Below, one piece after another: positions 34,967 through 64,000 of a stretch of 64,000 nucleotides of DNA. The stretch is taken from positions 3,410,001 through 3,474,000 of the forward strand of contig NC_135244.1 in assembly GCF_947623445.1 (NCBI RefSeq), in the 5' to 3' direction. The translations under genes were made by a program, and so were the position numbers. Source of the DNA: Clavelina lepadiformis. Its lineage: Eukaryota > Chordata > Ascidiacea > Aplousobranchia > Clavelinidae. Positions within the stretch are counted from its first letter, which is position 1. The number at the start of each line of letters is the position of its first letter. Under the pieces are notes generated by a model, which was given only the letters and a program-made list of their open reading frames with translations, was not told where the DNA came from and did not search any database.

Positions 34967-35899
34967 TTATTGCACAAATTGTAGGTTGTGGGCGATGCCT
35001 CTGAGAAAATCTAATATGTCACGGTTTGCAAAATCTTCAACGATGGTTTTAAGTGGCGCATCCAGATCCTTATATTTTCCCCTTTTGGCAGGAGGGCCTT
35101 GGGCACAGAGCGCCTCAATCTTGTTTTTGTTTATGTTCTGCAATTTCCTCAAAGCTTCTATAAATTTCCAAATGGTTGGGTGTTGCATTGATAACATCTT
35201 GTTTATTAGATTGTGGTGACCTTCAACTTTGTTGTTGGTTCTGGCGTCGCCATTTAACACCCGAACATGGACGTTCCAGAAGTCATGTGAATATGGCGGG
35301 TCTCGTCGGCGAGCCCGAAAGCGACGCCCGATGTAAGTACACTCAAAGTAGTCGAGAAGCGGAAGCATTTCATCAGGCACAACTTCCTCTAATGTTTCAA
35401 AAGCCTCAATTAGATGCTGTATTGGAACAAATGCCAAAGCCGGTATGTGACGCAGCAGTAGTGCAAATTCTGGATCATTTTGATACCTTCTTTGAAGTCC
35501 GATTTTCTGCATGTGCTTCCTAACATTTTGATTTAAATGAAAAAAACAACCACTTACTGTGAGGTCATCATAGTCAAACACCATCCGAATTGCATTTATT
35601 GCAGACATTTCAAAATCAACCAAAAAACTTGTTGGATGTGCATTTGGTATCAGTTGCCACACTGCGCGAAATAACCGCTCATATGTTTCTTGTGCTTTGT
35701 TCGGTAGTAAACAGTAAAACGCTGGGACAAGGTCGCCATGTCGTGAAGCATGGATAGAGTAAACCTGTGAAAATATTGGCGGGGTAACCTTGAACGTCCC
35801 ATCAGCTTGCCAGTTTTCTGATAATTCTAGTACTCTTTTGCTCTCTTCGGTGCCAAAAATTAATATCCTATTTTCTTCAGCTCCCGAGTCATACTGCAA
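34967..35899 (-). CDS. MULE transposase, catalytic part
   Basis: About 310 codons. Motifs in order: WQADGTFKVTPPIF (first catalytic Asp), FLVDFEMSAINAIRMVF (second Asp), CFFHLNQNVRKHM (the CxxH stretch after the second Asp) and RTNNKVEGHHNLIN (the conserved Glu). The frame ends with a stop 382 bases from the element's left end. It overlaps the FLYWCH frame by 40 bases in another register. Aligning the two implies a single-base difference in a run of six T residues near 35892. The downstream frame (LQYDSGAEENRILIFGT) is the family-typical continuation. So this is one transposase gene split by a frameshift, not two genes. Confidence 0.82.
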   Translation of the reverse strand: MQYDSGAEENRILIFGTEESKRVLELSENWQADGTFKVTPPIFSQVYSIHASRHGDLVPAFYCLLPNKAQETYERLFRAVWQLIPNAHPTSFLVDFEMSAINAIRMVFDYDDLTVSGCFFHLNQNVRKHMQKIGLQRRYQNDPEFALLLRHIPALAFVPIQHLIEAFETLEEVVPDEMLPLLDYFECTYIGRRFRARRRDPPYSHDFWNVHVRVLNGDARTNNKVEGHHNLINKMLSMQHPTIWKFIEALRKLQNINKNKIEALCAQGPPAKRGKYKDLDAPLKTIVEDFANRDILDFLRGIAHNLQFVQ

Positions 35900-36381
35900 A
35901 AAAGTTCAGACCCCTTAGCATCATCTAAAAGAATATGTTTGTATGAGTCAGGTATTTCTAAATCTGTGCAGTTCCGTGGATTTGCAGGTGCTGAAACAGT
36001 CCTAAGTCGTGTTCGTTGTATTGTTTTTTTCAGATTTTTTTCCACAATAAGCGCTCTGACGGCACCTGGCAATCCCACTGTCGCGTCAGATATGATATTT
36101 GCTGGTGTGGACATATCGTTAGCGTTGCCCGCGCGTTCCTTGACGACCGTAAGTAGTTTGGCCACTTGAACATGTCTCTCTTCTTGCAAGTGACTGTGTT
36201 CGTGCAACTCTTTCGTGACTAAGCCATCTACAGTATGGAGACGTGCCTTACAAGAACTCTTGTAGTAATTGCTGCATCTCCAGAATGTAGTTTTCCCGTC
36301 TAAACTTTGTCCATCTCTCCAGAAAATGTAATGGTTGTAAACTAATTTTTTCTTACCTCTCTCTGAGATTACTTCTGCCAT
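35860..36381 (-). CDS. FLYWCH zinc-finger part of the MULE transposase
   Basis: About 173 codons from an ATG at 36381. The N-terminal FLYWCH domain reads LVYNHYIFWRDGQ, then TTFWRCSNYYKSSCKARLHT and ELHEHSH. It has the aromatic, the two Cys and the two His that bind zinc in this family; it would recognise the element's ends. The frame runs off into a short wrong-register tail (about the last 13 codons) after the T-run near 35892. Confidence 0.82.
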   Translation of the reverse strand: MAEVISERGKKKLVYNHYIFWRDGQSLDGKTTFWRCSNYYKSSCKARLHTVDGLVTKELHEHSHLQEERHVQVAKLLTVVKERAGNANDMSTPANIISDATVGLPGAVRALIVEKNLKKTIQRTRLRTVSAPANPRNCTDLEIPDSYKHILLDDAKGSELFCSMTRELKKIGY

Positions 36382-36926
36382 TTTCAGACCTTAAAAATCA
36401 GTTTTATACTAAAAGTGTCGGCATCTAGTATGCAAAAGTATCTCAATCACGTGGCTAACAAATATAGGCATTACAACGGGTTTACTGGCAACTCACTTAA
36501 ACAAGTCAGGCTAACAACTGCAATACACATACTAAATTGGCTGGGATTAAAGCTGATGCGCGACTAGATATAACACAAAGAAACTGGAAGCACATGGTTA
36601 GCAAGCAGGTCACGGTTCACAATAAACAACAATGCTAATTTGGACTACTTATTTCATACAATTGTACGGTTAAAATGCATAGCGGTTGATTTGTGTCGTC
36701 GGCCAATTTGTTGCCGGTCAGTTGATCAAGACCAATTGTCGCCGGTCAATTGACGTGATCCCGTTATAAATATGGTGACATGCAAACAAATTGGCAGCAA
36801 CAAAAGCCACCTTTTTAAGCAAAACCAACAATTTTGAAAATAATCATATCTTTAAAAATAAGTTTAAGTTGCTTTTACCATTTTAGGACAAAGACCAAAA
36901 CTTTTACAAATAACATAGGTATTGTT

Positions 36927-51609: not shown

Positions 51610-53059
51610 CAGTGCTGGCAAAAAAAATCTTTACATAGACAAAAAAATCTTTACATAGACAAAAAAAATCTTTACAAAAAATTCAAACGAAAGGACTTCA
51701 CAAATTATGTCTTTTATTGCACATAAAATATTGTCAATCAGTACTTTGTCATCTCGCCCTTGGAATTGATGACAATTTGAAGCCTTCTGGGTATGGAATC
51801 AGCAAGGGAGGCAAAGTAGGTGGAGTCCAGGGTTACCCAGAGTTTTTTCAGCTCATGCTGAAGATCATTGATACTGCTTGGCCGCTTCTCTTGAATTTGG
51901 TTTTTTAAGACATTCCATGCATTTTGAATCGGATTAAGGTCTGGCGAATTACCAGGCCACTCTAAAACCTCGATAATATGCTCATTAAGAAAGTTTTTTA
52001 CGATCTTCGACTTGTGTGCTGGACTGCTGGTGCACCATCATGCATGAAATGATCACACTGATGAATCCTCCAGAATGTGAGAAGATGATCTTTTAAAACA
52101 GTGATATAATTGCTTCCTTTCTTTGTTACATTTCTCGGAAGGAAGTACAAACCTGCCCGGTCCATATTTCCACTGAAAGCACCCCACACCATTACACTGC
52201 CAGGGTGTTTCATCGTTTTAACCGTATATTTAGGGTCATACCGTGATGCGGTACTCGGACGACGCACCATCTTTGGGACTCCCCTCACCAGTCTAAAAGT
52301 GCTCTCATCACTGAACATTACTTTTCTCCACTCTTCAGTTGTCCAATATCTATATCTTTTGCAAAAAATGAGTCTTTTCTTCTTCATAGCTGCAGTAAGC
52401 ATGGGCTTCTTGGCTGCACGGCGACATGGCAGACCAAGGTCCTTTTGCAGTCGATGACGAATTTTCCTGGTGGAGACGCAATTGAGAAGCTCTGGGTGCT
52501 TGTTTTTCAATTCAAACGAGGTTATAGACGGATATGATGTTACTTCACGCTTCAAAAGCTTATCCGTTCTTGGCGTGGTCTTCTTAGGTGCGCCAGAGCC
52601 TGACTTCCTCTTCGGTACCATCCCGGGTGGAAATGACGACGTCGATCTTTTTAACTGATAAATGGCCTCTCTTGAGACCCCAATATCTCTGGCTACAGCA
52701 ATCACAGAATCTCCCTTCTCTAACAAAGTCAACGCACGAGACTTTTCTGCCATTTGCATCTTCTTTCGACCCATTTTCGTTTTTGCAATAAAATTTCCAA
52801 GTCCTCAAAATTTCAAGAAATTGAAAAATACTGACCGATTTCACCCACCTTACTATTCACCAAGCTGCAACACAACACGAGGAACGCAGAGCATTGTCTT
52901 TGCGGTGAAGTATAGCCACATAGTAGATTATGACGTAAATACAAGCGTTTTTGTGACACAATGCTTTTGGCGGGAACAGTAAGTAAAACACATACATGGA
53001 TTTTTCATGTAAAGTTTTTTTTTGCCAAATCAATGTAAAGATTTTTTTTGCCAGCACTG
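51610..53059 (-). mobile_element. Tc1-like transposon
   Basis: A 1450-bp element with perfect 27-bp terminal inverted repeats (starting CAGTGCTGGCA, then eight A residues and TCTTTACAT). It is flanked by TA at 51608-51609 and 53060-53061. The left end carries an AATCTTTACATAGAC unit three times in tandem. The transposase lies on the minus strand (next entry). Confidence 0.94.
51738..52774 (-). pseudogene. Tc1-like transposase with frameshift and altered catalytic residue
   Basis: Starts at the ATG at 52774. The N-terminal DNA-binding region includes SVIAVARDIGVSREAIYQLK (helix-turn-helix) and SITSFELKNKHPEL. First catalytic Asp in VMFSDESTF, second in HFMHDGAP. Just after the second Asp the frame breaks near 52010-52025, apparently through an extra GCAGTCCA-like 8 bases. 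The remaining third continues in another frame (IVKNFLNEH, then SPDLNPIQNAWNVLK) to a stop at 51738. The position of the third catalytic residue in Tc1 (Glu in NPIEN) is Gln here, so two independent faults make it inactive. The perfect TIRs could still be used in trans. Confidence 0.85.
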
Positions 53060-58117: not shown

Positions 58118-59301
58118 GTCTTGTGCCTTTCAAACACATCTAGAGCAAGTGCATCAGTTTCTAATTGACTTTATCCAAGCTTCAACCCTATCGCTCTATT
58201 TCGTTTGAAAATCTTGCCATACAGTATTTTTACACATTTTCATTGTTACTTTTCGTTTTTGCTGGTGCCGGAGTTAATTTGAAAATTAAAGATTCCCCAC
58301 TCACAGCCTTGCTATTTGTAATGTCACGTGCAGTTTAATGCAGTTCATTTGTTGCAAAGTTTGTTTGTTTTTTTCTAATGTTTTTTGTTCATTGCCTTCA
58401 ATTGAGTCAGATAAGTACTAAACTTTTGTTATCATCTTTAAGGTGTCATTTTTTATTATTACCATGTGTTAGTACTGTGAGTATTCCTGCATAGGGACTG
58501 TGTTTCTTTATGCTATTTTGTTCGTTTTCATTTTTTATATATGCACAAAATTTGAGTATTAACTAACAAAATGTTGTGTGCGTCTGCGAGACTGGGTAAC
58601 GTATATTTTCCTGGTGTCTGAATAAATTTTCTTAGGGACGACTTGATGGAAAGCTAATAGGTCTTGATGCAGCATGATAAGGGTTGAAACTAAAAGATTT
58701 ATTGAACGATTGCGAGAAATGTTGATATCTGACTAGGGACCTAGTTTGCTAAAAAACTTGGTGTGATATGCATTGACAGTTTACAGAATACTGTTCCAAT
58801 TGTGATAAACTACGGTAATTGTTCAAAAGTTGGGCAGACGTCCCTAAATCGAGCTCCCTGTATGTGACAACATGTCGGCTTGATGTTATTCGGTTAAAGC
58901 CCCGTTTGCAAATTCGTCCTGGGTTCGATACACAACGGCGCTACCCGTTGTGAAGAAGACAAGAACAATGATTGTCTCTGTTGAACCAACGATATAAAGA
59001 ACATGATAGGAAACTGCTAGGGGAAGTACCGTTTTTATTTCGCCCTCGTTACGCTTCAGTGCGGTCACATTCGTTTCACACGTTTGACTTTGGTTGAGCC
59101 TTGGACTTAGTGTAGCCTTACGGAGAAAGAACTATGATTAGGGGAAGGTGACCTTTGGAAGCGTATATATCAGTATAGCCTATAGGCCTAGCTGAATTTG
59201 GTTAACTTTGAAGTTTACAATGGTGCGAAATTTTTAAAACTCGGTGAAACTAGGCCTAAAGATCTACAGGTATGCTTGCAGATTGAGACTGCAATATTAA
59301 A
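58118..59301. other. interval with possible tRNA-derived SINE
   Basis: Contains the 3' end of the preceding gene. At 58895-58935 the sequence includes GGGTTCGATACACA, similar to a pol III B box, but no partner A box or acceptor stem is evident, so I do not call a tRNA. Confidence 0.3.
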
Positions 59302-59545: not shown

Positions 59546-59885
59546 ATTTCTGACACGGCAGGACATTCATCTTTCGAACCGTGTAATCGCTTTTCTTTTA
59601 ACTACAGCGATAAGAAAATAAATTGAATGTTTACAAGTCTAGCTCCTGCCATCAAAACTAGATAGCAAGCATTATTACATCATCCAGCATTCAAGTCAAA
59701 CAAAGCCTTTGTTACATCATAAACATTTTATTGCATTTGAATTCACACCTAGGGTGGACTCACCACCTTTATTTAAAGACGAAACGTGTACAAATGTGTA
59801 ACATACAAATTAAAATTGCGTTTCAGTTTACGCAGAATTTATCCTCCAACATACTCGAGAATACTAATTTCATCAGGAGTGAGGT

Positions 59886-60572
59886 TGCGGAGGCACTTGT
59901 TGGTTACACTATTCGGACTTAATTTACCTGCCGAATTAATGATCTGACTCCGTGGTTGCGTGCGGTTAGAAATCTCTAACCTTAACGTGTTACTACTGTT
60001 ACTAGCCGAAAGCTATTACGATTAACAGATACAGTTTATCAGAAAACAATCCTTTATTGTAGGAACTGTACAGGTTCCGATTAATATGACACAAGCACAA
60101 ACTTAGCATTCACCAATTAAAACAAGTCTAACGAATTACATTTTAACACGACTGACGTAATACGTTCGTGCGATTCGATATCTCTCTGTCTGCGCCGTTA
60201 CTCGCGCAGAAGTTCGAGTTTATAAAGCGGAGCGATGTGAGCGGAAATATTCAACACAATATACACGAACATTTCAGAATGTGTGAACGATAAAAACAAA
60301 GCGTTGGCAATGGGAATTACATTCAGTTAAAACTAGGATGTTATGAAATCACCTGGTAACGTACTAACGGCGTTTTCACATAAAGTTATTTAGAGCAAGT
60401 TTCCAAATGTTGCATCACGATTGCAGTGTTATAAAGTTGCAACTGCAGCCAAATTGCATCTGCAGAACTGCTGATTGCAGTCTTGTAAATGAACAATGTT
60501 TTAGTAACTAAATGGCGCATACGTTCTCACAATTGATATAACGTTATTGGATGTGGCTCCCAAGCCACTACA
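59886..60572 (-). repeat. long terminal repeat (3' LTR for the minus-strand element)
   Basis: 687 bp, TG...CA ended, appears identical to 62117-62803 throughout my line-by-line comparison (constant offset 2231). On the minus strand it has a TATA box (TTTATAAA, 60219-60226) followed about 165 bases later by AATAAA (60053-60058), the correct order for U3-R-U5. The 4-bp target duplication AGGT lies at 59882-59885. Confidence 0.93.
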
Positions 60573-60582
60573 TTCCTCCCCC
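60573..60582 (-). promoter_or_regulatory. polypurine tract
   Basis: GGGGGAGGAA on the minus strand, immediately before the 3' LTR; the usual primer for plus-strand synthesis in LTR elements. Confidence 0.8.
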
Positions 60583-60838
60583 GCTACGGAAGGCAAAAAA
60601 AAATTGACAATTAAAATGTAATATACTGATTACAACAATGAGCATGCAATACGACGGAAAATCGGTAACGATACGAGCACAAGACAAAACGACGCAGCAA
60701 AGAAAAGGTTATTACGCATGCACTAAGCAAAAGAGATATACTAAAAATGTCGGCCGACAACTACAAAGGGAAATGGTAAAAGGTTACATGCATACGACAT
60801 TAGCGGCACCGAAAACGCGTTTATACAATTAAAGAACC

Positions 60839-62020
60839 TCAAAGTTTGTGTGTGTCCGCGAATTCATCACGAGACGACGAAGCGGGCAGCGCGTCATCAG
60901 AAGATCCAGAAGAAGACGGTTGGTCACGAGAACGTCGAAGCAAGGGCGACGGATGAGTTTGTTGTGGATGTGCATCTCGATGGCTGCGTCCAGCGCGAAT
61001 ACGGGATACAAGGGATCTGGCATACCGCAAATGCTGCGGAGATGATCGGATAAACCCGATGGTATGGCAGAAGGCCCACATCATGGCAAGTAGCTGCAGG
61101 ATGAAGATAAGGGCTGAGAGAAAAGGATTCGTAATCTGTGACAATGCAAGCAGCAACGTTTGTTTCGCGGCGTGCGCGAACGTGTCTGCGACGTAGGATC
61201 CGTTGATCATAGTTTCATCAGTAGTAGTAAGACTTGTTATGACATTTCGCATTTTCTCCTTAAGCAGGTTGGCTTCAGACATAGAGCTGAGCAGCGATTG
61301 AAAGTCAGTGAACGAGTCGGAGTCAGGCAGCTCGTTGAGAATCTTCTCGTAGTCGGGAGCGTTGTAGCTGAGGTGTATAGTCGACAAAGGTAAGTTGAGT
61401 TGGTGCACCTGCACATGTTCGTGCGATAAGGTGTAGTTGTGATAAAGGACCGTGTCCCCATGAACTCGGAAGACAAAACTTCTAGCTGGTCGATACGATT
61501 CCAGCAGATGTACTCCCGGTAAGACAATGTTGTCTGAAATGAGTTGGCCGTATTGGCTGTGGCCGTTTTGATCGCGATAAAGGATGAGAGGGCGTTGACT
61601 GAACGCGTTGCGGTACGCAAGTGACGGTAAGACAGTACCGTTGATAGCGTGACATGTTGCTCTGGACATAAAATCTCCAAGGTTGGAACCCATGGCTTGA
61701 TGTCCAAGAGTAGAAGACAGTATCTCAGTAGGGAAAATCTTCCCAACTGCTTTGTAGAGTGTGCCAATCAGCTTCGTGAGTTGACAATGTAGGAACTTGT
61801 TGTCTTCATTGAACGTAGTGAGAACTTCGGAAATGTAAGCGAAACATGTAAGCATCAAACAAATGAACATGTTGTGTTTGTAATCAGAGAAACGTTTCGG
61901 TGGAAGGATTTTCCAACCAGTCCAAGAAGTCCTGAATGTGGCAGAAGAGGTTGTAGCGTCGTCATCATCGTCGTCTTCGTCATCTCCGTCAGAAACTGAA
62001 CTACTTTGAGCTGGAGCCAT
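60839..62020 (-). CDS. envelope-like membrane protein of the LTR element
   Basis: 393 codons from an ATG at 62020 with good context, intact. An acidic run of Asp/Glu/Ser (about 8-25) precedes a hydrophobic segment at about 50-66, possibly a signal anchor. The middle (about 67-295) has three N-x-S/T sequons and few cysteines. A strong membrane segment lies at about 296-322, followed by a roughly 70-residue Arg/Ser-rich tail. This layout resembles the membrane-anchored subunit of retroviral or errantivirus-type envelope proteins, or a captured cellular membrane protein. I recognise no diagnostic fusion peptide or furin site, so 'envelope-like' rests on topology and on its place in an LTR element. 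The ORF starts only about 97 bases after the 5' LTR, where gag would normally be. Confidence 0.6.
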   Translation of the reverse strand: MAPAQSSSVSDGDDEDDDDDDATTSSATFRTSWTGWKILPPKRFSDYKHNMFICLMLTCFAYISEVLTTFNEDNKFLHCQLTKLIGTLYKAVGKIFPTEILSSTLGHQAMGSNLGDFMSRATCHAINGTVLPSLAYRNAFSQRPLILYRDQNGHSQYGQLISDNIVLPGVHLLESYRPARSFVFRVHGDTVLYHNYTLSHEHVQVHQLNLPLSTIHLSYNAPDYEKILNELPDSDSFTDFQSLLSSMSEANLLKEKMRNVITSLTTTDETMINGSYVADTFAHAAKQTLLLALSQITNPFLSALIFILQLLAMMWAFCHTIGFIRSSPQHLRYARSLVSRIRAGRSHRDAHPQQTHPSPLLRRSRDQPSSSGSSDDALPASSSRDEFADTHKL

Positions 62021-62116
62021 TGCTGTCGTTGTTGTTAATCAGCTTGTTTACAAGAATAAAGTTAACAGTGTCCGCTTCATTGAAACACGTCGGGTCAACG
62101 TCGGTGGTCATCAAAA

Positions 62117-62803
62117 TGCGGAGGCACTTGTTGGTTACACTATTCGGACTTAATTTACCTGCCGAATTAATGATCTGACTCCGTGGTTGCGTGCGGTTAG
62201 AAATCTCTAACCTTAACGTGTTACTACTGTTACTAGCCGAAAGCTATTACGATTAACAGATACAGTTTATCAGAAAACAATCCTTTATTGTAGGAACTGT
62301 ACAGGTTCCGATTAATATGACACAAGCACAAACTTAGCATTCACCAATTAAAACAAGTCTAACGAATTACATTTTAACACGACTGACGTAATACGTTCGT
62401 GCGATTCGATATCTCTCTGTCTGCGCCGTTACTCGCGCAGAAGTTCGAGTTTATAAAGCGGAGCGATGTGAGCGGAAATATTCAACACAATATACACGAA
62501 CATTTCAGAATGTGTGAACGATAAAAACAAAGCGTTGGCAATGGGAATTACATTCAGTTAAAACTAGGATGTTATGAAATCACCTGGTAACGTACTAACG
62601 GCGTTTTCACATAAAGTTATTTAGAGCAAGTTTCCAAATGTTGCATCACGATTGCAGTGTTATAAAGTTGCAACTGCAGCCAAATTGCATCTGCAGAACT
62701 GCTGATTGCAGTCTTGTAAATGAACAATGTTTTAGTAACTAAATGGCGCATACGTTCTCACAATTGATATAACGTTATTGGATGTGGCTCCCAAGCCACT
62801 ACA
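62117..62803 (-). repeat. long terminal repeat (5' LTR for the minus-strand element)
   Basis: Same 687 bases as 59886-60572. Its TATA box is at 62450-62457. Right flank AGGT (62804-62807) completes the target duplication. Confidence 0.93.
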
Positions 62804-62985
62804 AGGTTACTTGATGGCAATTCTGTTGTATTTTCTGCGTGTATTTTCCTAGAGTAAACAATCCAACTTATTGCAATTGATTTCAGAAAGTTGGAACATA
62901 TTATACCACACCATTCAATATCAGTATAATACAACATTAATATCTTATCACATTAAATGTTAAGCTGAATCATAAAAATATATAC

Positions 62986-63696: not shown

Positions 63697-64000
63697 GTTG
63701 GCAACTGATAGGCTACACACGTTTGAATCGTCAAAACAACGTAAACAGCAACCTCACTTCTCAGTAATCGATAAACGAACCATGCAAATGCGTATAACTT
63801 TTCGCCACGACTCGCGTAGTGTGAGTGAGTAAGTGTCCGCAACCATGCGTGACGCGGGCGAAACAAAACCTTCTCTTCTCATAAAAAAGAAACAAACGAG
63901 GAGGAGGTAGTTTCCCATCATGTTCTTTATATCGTTGGTTGAACAGTTCTAATTTCAAATGATAAAAACAACATGAGTGTTTATTGTCGATCAGATTGTC
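63697..64000. other. promoter side of the zinc-finger gene
   Basis: Holds the 5' leader and presumably the promoter of the minus-strand zinc-finger gene. GC content is higher than average around 63790-63860. ORFs here are accidental. Confidence 0.35.

What the first reader, a model, noticed from the sequence alone, without database searches (positions are those of the whole stretch)
59886..62803. Young LTR element whose only gene is an envelope-like membrane protein
Sequence shows two apparently identical 687-bp LTRs, a 4-bp target duplication, a polypurine tract, TATA and poly(A) signals in order, and one intact 393-codon ORF with two hydrophobic segments, three glycosylation sequons and a basic tail. 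No gag or pol is present. Autonomous LTR elements need gag-pol, and known non-autonomous ones (TRIM, LARD) usually lack intact genes. An intact membrane-protein ORF starting about 97 bases after the LTR suggests either a mobilised spliced env transcript or capture of a cellular gene. A young env-only or gene-carrying LTR family would be unusual.
Basis: partly seen in the sequence, partly recalled or inferred. Interest (0 to 1): 0.85.

Follow-up and report, generated by a model that had tools for sequence, protein, structure and literature searches.

The report
Sea-squirt retroelement carrying only truncated envelope
In a sea-squirt genome, a recently inserted retrovirus-like element carries a single intact gene, a shortened version of a herpesvirus-type envelope protein; it belongs to a family of such gene-poor copies whose envelope gene appears to have been kept open by selection although the elements lack the genes needed to copy themselves.

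Summary
Window 59886-62803 (minus strand) is an LTR element with two identical 687-bp LTRs, a 4-bp target duplication, a polypurine tract, no gag or pol, and one 393-codon ORF. The host is the tunicate Clavelina lepadiformis. The ORF is the C-terminal half of an Env related to herpesvirus glycoprotein B (PF00606, E 1.2e-9). The genome holds relatives with gag, pol and a complete Env of about 640 aa; in the window ORF the surface half (about 300 codons) is deleted and the signal peptide is joined to the gB-like half. At least 24 full-span copies share this form; 23 lack an in-frame stop. In eight copies compared, replacements are well below neutral expectation (75 against 112; 0 of 2000 draws as low). 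Nine of the 24 also keep a second, weakly gag-like ORF, which the window copy has lost. Origin from a spliced env RNA is possible but not shown. Inferred: trans-mobilisation by full-length relatives, and a stub acting through the Env trimer core. Closest precedents: Tas (gB-like env) and rotifer TelKA2n (non-autonomous, keeps env).

The parts
62117..62803 (-). 5' LTR, 687 bp
   Evidence: identical to the 3' LTR; TG...CA
59886..60572 (-). 3' LTR, 687 bp
62804..62807 (.). target-site duplication AGGT (right copy)
59882..59885 (.). target-site duplication AGGT (left copy)
62450..62455 (-). TATAAA in the 5' LTR
   Evidence: LTR position 349; motif only
62284..62289 (-). AATAAA in the 5' LTR
   Evidence: LTR position 515; motif only
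62086..62113 (-). degenerate primer-binding-site region (tRNA-Trp type)
   Evidence: the same place in L009, L015 and L016 carries TGGTGACCCCGACGTGA, complementary to the 3' end of host tRNA-Trp-like sequences plus CCA
60839..62020 (-). ORF, 393 codons: surface-less gB-like Env
61932..62020 (-). family-specific 5' coding segment, absent from the two full-length-type relatives read (L017, L039)
61823..61870 (-). hydrophobic segment = signal peptide of the full-length Env
   Evidence: corresponds to the Env start of L017 and P0003; hydropathy
61835..61840 (-). junction left by the deleted surface domain (about 300 codons absent), a few unmatched bases
   Evidence: comparison with L017, L015, L011, L012, L014
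61391..61786 (-). region matching herpesvirus gB ectodomain (residues 79-210)
   Evidence: PF00606 E 1.2e-9, 38.4 bits, curated cut-off 43; PDB phmmer best 5.1e-5; profile best 1.2e-6
61049..61135 (-). membrane anchor, residues about 296-324
60633..60639 (-). point where about 0.8 kb with the downstream ORF2 is missing compared with L009
   Evidence: interior match breaks at 1478/1484
60573..60584 (-). polypurine tract

Best explanation
The window holds a young copy of a non-autonomous LTR retroelement family of Clavelina lepadiformis that descends from retrovirus-like gag-pol-env elements with a herpesvirus-gB-like Env. SHOWN: it has no gag or pol, keeps LTRs, priming signals and one ORF, and that ORF is an Env lacking the surface half; the family has at least 24 full-span copies, and changes in the ORF bear the mark of purifying selection. 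INFERRED: it is copied in trans by Gag-Pol of full-length relatives that share its LTR and polypurine tract. INFERRED, weaker: the protein is a membrane-anchored stub that keeps the gB trimer core (domains III-V and anchor, by position) but not the part that in gB carries the fusion loops, so it should not fuse membranes alone and most likely acts by assembling with full-length Env, interfering with its maturation or use (a satellite- or receptor-interference-like role).
For: Full-length relative L017: LTRs with TSD AGAA, gag 404 aa, pol and env in one open frame, RVT_1, RNase H and integrase domains. Window LTR 91-92% identical to L017's with the same polypurine tract. Window interior 96% identical in DNA over 1095 bp to L017 env; the surface region is absent. 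gB homology. Copies: 24 full-span surface-less rows among 107 matches, 23 without stop. dN/dS 0.15-0.69 in 27 of 28 pairs among window, L009 and L011-L016; the 28th (tandem duplicates L015/L016) has no synonymous change and 3 non-synonymous. On a tree of 8 copies, 150 inferred changes outside the 5' segment: 75 non-synonymous, 112.1 expected, 0 of 2000 draws as low; the 63 on internal branches: 27 against 46.4, 0 of 2000. ORF2 is intact in 9 of the 24 while the Env ORF is free of stops in 23, so Env is the constant part. Potential helpers: 64 exact unspliced leader-donor sites; 44 of 69 other env rows have one 3.5-8 kb upstream, against 0 of 24 surface-less copies within 9 kb.
Against: Nothing shows expression, translation, membrane location or interaction with full-length Env. 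The AlphaFold models are too poor to use (mean pLDDT 37.1 and 33.0). Domain numbering by gB is recalled and positional; only one stretch is matched by sequence, and the Pfam score is below the curated cut-off. Copies look mosaic (C-terminal tails of some match L017's), so selection on full-length Env spread by recombination could produce part of the signal; in the family-specific 5' segment alone the evidence is borderline (7 non-synonymous of 14, 10.0 expected, 107 of 2000 draws as low). One of the 8 copies in that test (L015) keeps part of the surface region. Counting 7 partial loci that I read as surface-less from coordinates, 6 of 31 carry a stop or frameshift.
Confidence: 0.6

Rival explanations
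1. Pure passenger: the surface-less Env has no function; the ORF is open because the copies are young or because template switching with full-length elements keeps refreshing it.
For: LTR pairs of the nine derivative elements measured are 0-1.3% different; tails of L011, L012, L013 and L014 match L017's while window and L009 differ; 6 of 31 surface-less loci look broken.
Against: Apart from the L015/L016 duplicates, copies differ at 3-19% of synonymous sites, far more than their LTR pairs, so the divergence arose in master lineages; for one branch of 0.05 only 14% of neutral draws stay open by substitutions alone; non-synonymous deficit 0 of 2000; the 5' segment absent from the full-length-type relatives read shows pooled pN/pS 0.24, though its own test is borderline.
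Confidence: 0.3
2. Origin as a retrotransposed spliced env messenger RNA, followed by deletion of the surface domain.
For: Both gag-pol-env relatives read (L017, L039) have the leader donor TTCACTG^GTAAGTG. L010 and one other locus carry the exact spliced leader-to-gag junction, so spliced RNAs of this family do get retrotransposed. Similarity between window and these elements starts at an AG upstream of env (in L017 by eye). Derivatives such as L009 keep what an env transcript would keep: leader, env, ORF2.
Against: The 5' coding segment is not found in L017 or L039. No site joins the leader donor to it at up to 2 mismatches, and no exact match of its end is followed by GT. The surface-domain junction has no GT-AG logic.
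Confidence: 0.4
3. Capture of a cellular membrane-protein gene by an LTR element.
For: The 5' segment (about 29 mostly acidic codons) has no known source and could be host-derived.
Against: The rest of the ORF is nearly identical to the env of full-length relatives and matches viral gB.
Confidence: 0.03
4. Host-domesticated env gene (syncytin or restriction-factor type) serving the sea squirt.
For: Constraint on the ORF.
Against: The constrained ORF sits in many dispersed young elements with their own LTRs; 9 of 10 anatomised elements have a matching 4-bp duplication. It is not in one fixed locus.
Confidence: 0.07

Closest known systems
Tas element of Ascaris (belpaovirus)
   Same: LTR element with an env weakly similar to herpesvirus gB (PMC9094657 and PMC5962544, passages read)
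   Different: Tas is classified by its own reverse transcriptase and lives in a nematode; here the host is a tunicate and the window copy has only the C-terminal half of env. PMC7642597 (passages read) assigns Tas to phlebovirus and Cer to herpesvirus, so the papers disagree.
TelKA2n of bdelloid rotifers
   Different: TelKA env is paramyxovirus-F-like, about 1.7 kb; here gag and pol are wholly absent and the surface half of a gB-like env is deleted.
Oikopleura dioica endogenous retroviruses (Tor)
   Same: Env-bearing LTR elements in a tunicate (PMC4977317, passage read; the name Tor is recalled)
   Different: One family possibly has a paramyxovirus env; no gB-type env or surface-less derivative is mentioned in the passage read.
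TRIM / LARD
   Same: Non-autonomous LTR elements mobilised in trans (recalled)
   Different: By recalled definition they lack coding capacity; this family keeps a selected ORF.
Receptor-interference env loci (Fv4, Refrex-1 type)
   Same: Truncated or isolated env products that act against full-length virus (recalled)
   Different: Those are host-fixed loci; here the product, if it works so, rides on a mobile element.

Membership tests
LTR retrotransposon | identical LTRs TG...CA, target duplication, polypurine tract | tested here: met
LTR retrotransposon | primer-binding site complementary to a host tRNA | tested here: inconclusive
   window copy degenerate; L009, L015, L016 carry 17 bases complementary to host tRNA-Trp-like 3' ends plus CCA
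LTR retrotransposon (autonomous) | gag and pol | tested here: not met
   not detected in the window; present in L017 and L039
Ty3/gypsy-type element (Metaviridae) | pol order RT, RNase H, integrase (excludes copia, not BEL/Pao) | tested here: met
   Pfam on L017 pol; not applicable to the window copy itself, which has no pol
Ty3/gypsy-type element (Metaviridae) | RT phylogeny within Ty3/gypsy | not tested
   no tree was built; the pol genome search stayed unanswered (and earlier)
Herpesvirus-gB-like Env (class III fusogen) | sequence homology to the gB ectodomain | tested here: met
   PF00606 1.2e-9 but below the curated cut-off; profile against PDB 1.2e-6, the 43 listed hits are gB or its named equivalents GP110/BALF4
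Herpesvirus-gB-like Env (class III fusogen) | fusion-loop domain | tested here: not met
   the surface half is absent from the window ORF; that it corresponds to gB domains I-II is inferred by position
Herpesvirus-gB-like Env (class III fusogen) | class III fold | tested here: inconclusive
   models of pLDDT 37.1 and 33.0
TRIM / LARD | no coding capacity | tested here: not met
   intact, selected ORF

The most novel reading that the evidence does not exclude
A satellite system of a retrovirus-like family: surface-less Env (with or without ORF2) and a gag-ORF2 chimera travel as separate LTR elements, each with an intact ORF, mobilised by full-length gB-enveloped relatives, and the Env stub is selected because it interferes with, or modifies, the helper's envelope. 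That would be a defective-interfering or split retroelement maintained in a genome by selection on a truncated fusogen.
Probability: 0.2. Interest if true: 0.85.

Novelty: new variant of a known kind. Interest (0 to 1): 0.62.

Why it matters
Retroelements are said to lose env first and keep gag-pol (PMC9094657, passage); here a lineage did the opposite, and then kept only half of env under apparent selection. It offers a natural case to ask whether a non-autonomous retroelement can profit from an envelope fragment (interference, particle sharing or host protection). It also adds a gB-like envelope in a chordate retroelement with many recent copies, where the papers I saw cite only weak similarity in a nematode element.

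Tried and rejected
Captured cellular gene: rejected for residues 30-393. Divergent gag: rejected. gag/pol remnants in the window: none detected. Surface-domain loss as an intron: rejected, no GT-AG at the junction. Leader donor spliced to the 5' segment: 0 matches at up to 2 mismatches (its control pattern gave 1 and 1). 5' segment followed by GT: 0 exact matches. AlphaFold models: too poor, no fold search was run. ORF2 against L017 Gag: no significant BLASTP match, only a weak DUF7041 hit (E 0.057), although UniRef names 5 of its 13 relatives 'Gag protein'. NCBIfam gave nothing. No paper on gB-type env in tunicates or on Clavelina retroelements turned up in the listings (open-licence PMC only); one search listed one paper holding the words Clavelina lepadiformis and retrotransposon (PMC12373286), which I did not open.

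Rows dropped and limits: L016 was left out as a near-duplicate of L015, and L017 as a full-length element. The tally of 24 uses only rows covering residues 1 to 392/393; 69 rows were treated as surface-containing or full-length type and 14 as partial (24 + 69 + 14 = the 107 rows). One search was given 17 of the 109 ORF2 rows; I checked by eye that no other row lies within 1.5 kb of the 24. Counts are lower bounds: one search scored 40 of 757 candidates, 105 of 429, 40 of 69. Only the window, L009, L011-L014 and L034 were read as surface-less DNA; the other copies are known from coordinates and translated matches.
Full report
Observation. The element lies on the minus strand at 59886-62803. Its LTRs (59886-60572, 62117-62803) are identical over 687 bp and flanked by AGGT on both sides. 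TATAAA and AATAAA occur in that order in the LTR, and a polypurine tract abuts the 3' LTR. Between the LTRs there are 1544 bp with one long ORF, 60839-62020, 393 codons, starting at base 97 after the LTR. One addition: the primer-binding site of this copy is degenerate; the corresponding place in L009, L015 and L016 reads TGGTGACCCCGACGTGA, complementary to the 3' ends of host tRNA-Trp-like sequences plus CCA (10 pattern matches, letters shown for 8, control 0; that they are tRNA-Trp is by recall of the sequence).

Host. The best protein match is 97% identical and comes from Clavelina lepadiformis, a tunicate. The window is C5:3410001-3474000 of a 209-Mb assembly.

What the ORF is. Pfam PF00606, herpesvirus glycoprotein B ectodomain, matches residues 79-210 at E 1.2e-9 (38.4 bits; the curated cut-off is 43). 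phmmer against solved structures gives gB chains from E 5.1e-5, and a profile of relatives gives gB from 1.2e-6, the 43 listed hits being gB or its named equivalents. Structure prediction was uninformative (pLDDT 37.1 and 33.0). In solved gB this stretch belongs to the central helix and crown (domains III-IV) by recall of residue numbers.

Full-length relatives. L017 (C3:3208800-3218700) has LTRs with TSD AGAA, a 404-aa gag ORF and an open frame of 1770 codons that runs from pol (RVT_1, RNase H, integrase zinc finger and core) into a 642-residue Env. The window interior is 96% identical in DNA to L017 env over 1095 bp; the tblastn alignment reports 91.6% over 358 residues but includes about 20 unrelated residues before the junction. 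In the full-length Env a surface region of roughly 300 residues, ending near a basic PRR motif at position 285, lies between the signal peptide and the gB-like part; the first 300 positions hold 15 cysteines. In the window that region is gone and the signal peptide is joined to the gB-like part, with a few unmatched bases at the junction. No GT-AG pattern fits that junction.

A second, very young family. L039 is a gag-pol-env element of another subfamily with a further ORF after env; its 3' end was not fetched. In one search, 46 rows have open frames of 646-670 codons (read from the list used) and 21 rows share the same score of 623.5, so this family expanded recently. L039 has the same leader splice donor; 64 exact copies of that donor motif exist in the genome, and 44 of 69 other env rows have one 3.5-8 kb upstream, against 0 of 24 surface-less copies within 9 kb.

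The surface-less family. Twenty-four rows cover residues 1 to 392/393 of the window ORF without a gap for the surface region; 23 have no in-frame stop. Seven partial loci also appear surface-less by their coordinates; of all 31, six carry a stop or frameshift. Six surface-less copies besides the window's were read as DNA (L009, L011, L012, L013, L014, L034), and two tandem copies that keep part of the surface region (L015, L016): the ORF is open in all eight, with an in-frame deletion in L011. L034 has no recognisable 5' LTR. Of ten elements anatomised with paired LTRs (window, L009-L017), nine have a matching 4-bp duplication (L012 does not). LTR pairs of the nine derivatives differ by 0-1.3%; L017's have no substitution and one gap.

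A downstream ORF2 of 187-201 codons is intact in 9 of the 24, a remnant in 2 and not found in 13, including the window. It also follows env in gag-pol-env elements. It has a weak DUF7041 (gag-type) match (E 0.057), no significant BLASTP match to L017 Gag, and dN/dS of 0.41-0.83 in the 8 of 10 pairs with synonymous changes.

Selection. Pairwise dN/dS of the Env ORF among window, L009 and L011-L016 lies between 0.15 and 0.69 in 27 of 28 pairs; the other pair has no synonymous change. On a tree of eight copies (window, L009, L011-L015, L034) 150 changes outside the 5' segment include 75 non-synonymous, against 112.1 expected when the same changes fall at random (0 of 2000 draws as low); internal branches 27 against 46.4 (0 of 2000); terminal branches 48 against 66.0 (0 of 2000). 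In the 5' segment, absent from L017 and L039, 7 of 14 changes are non-synonymous against 10.0 expected (107 of 2000), and pooled pN/pS is 0.24. So the ORF has been constrained while the lineage multiplied. Recombination with full-length elements, suggested by shared C-terminal tails, may contribute.

Origin. Two lines favour spliced RNA: the strong leader donor, and a gag-type derivative (L010; a second locus at C8:19418753 by motif and coordinates) that carries the exact joined leader-gag junction and a 401-codon open frame fusing the first part of gag to the end of ORF2. Similarity of the window to L039 begins at an AG, and likewise by eye in L017. Against it, the 5' segment has no source in these elements, no site joins the donor to it, and no exact match of its end is followed by GT. 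A degenerate copy (L029) and L015 already have this segment fused to an Env that still has surface sequence, and at C3:6793388-6795522 the spacing fits a complete surface region in a 725-codon frame (not read). So the segment was probably acquired before the surface domain was lost.

How it most likely works. Without gag and pol the element must be copied in trans; L017-type elements share its LTR (91-92%) and polypurine tract. The protein should be inserted into membranes through its retained signal and anchor. It keeps the part of gB that forms the trimer core but lacks the half in which gB carries its fusion loops (positional inference), so fusion by itself is unlikely. Persisting constraint then suggests a role with full-length Env: mixed trimers or interference. 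This last step is inference only.

Comparison. gB-like env has been cited for Tas (PMC9094657 and PMC5962544, passages), although another paper assigns Tas and Cer the other way round (PMC7642597, passages). A non-autonomous rotifer family that keeps env exists (TelKA2n; PMC5408684, passages). Tunicate endogenous retroviruses are known from Oikopleura, one possibly with a paramyxovirus env (PMC4977317, passage). I found no report of a gB-type env in tunicates or of a surface-less env-only family in the searches listed under Tried and rejected. Hence: new variant of a known kind.

Noticed in passing
L039; 46 rows: A gag-pol-env family with a further ORF after env has expanded very recently: 46 env rows with open frames 646-670, 21 of all rows sharing one score.
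   Followed up: partly
L010:1409-2569(+); C8:19418753-19419910(+): L010 carries an exact spliced leader junction and a 401-codon open frame fusing gag to ORF2; a second locus shows the same junction motif and frame length. Evidence that spliced RNAs of this family are retrotransposed.
   Followed up: partly
L009:2937-3542(+) and equivalents: ORF2, a weakly gag-like ORF downstream of env, present in gag-pol-env and derivative elements; possible accessory gene.
   Followed up: partly
61932-62020 (minus strand): The 29-codon, mostly acidic 5' segment of the ORF occurs in at least 40 places but its source is unknown.
   Followed up: partly
58978-59015 and 63909-63946: A 38-bp inverted repeat (95%) brackets the element and short ORFs on both sides, perhaps an older DNA transposon into which it inserted; Pfam found nothing in the two short ORFs tested.
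   Followed up: partly
C1:359326, 422001, 484676: LTRs spaced by exactly 62,675 bp, suggesting a tandem segmental duplication of that size.
   Followed up: no
C9:3801445-3818569 (L015, L016): Tandem array of LTRs and interiors of this family with repeat units of about 0.6 kb beside it, partly withheld.
   Followed up: no
window 34970-36390 (-), 52001-52804 (-): MULE transposase next to a FLYWCH finger, and a Tc3-type transposase fragment.
   Followed up: no
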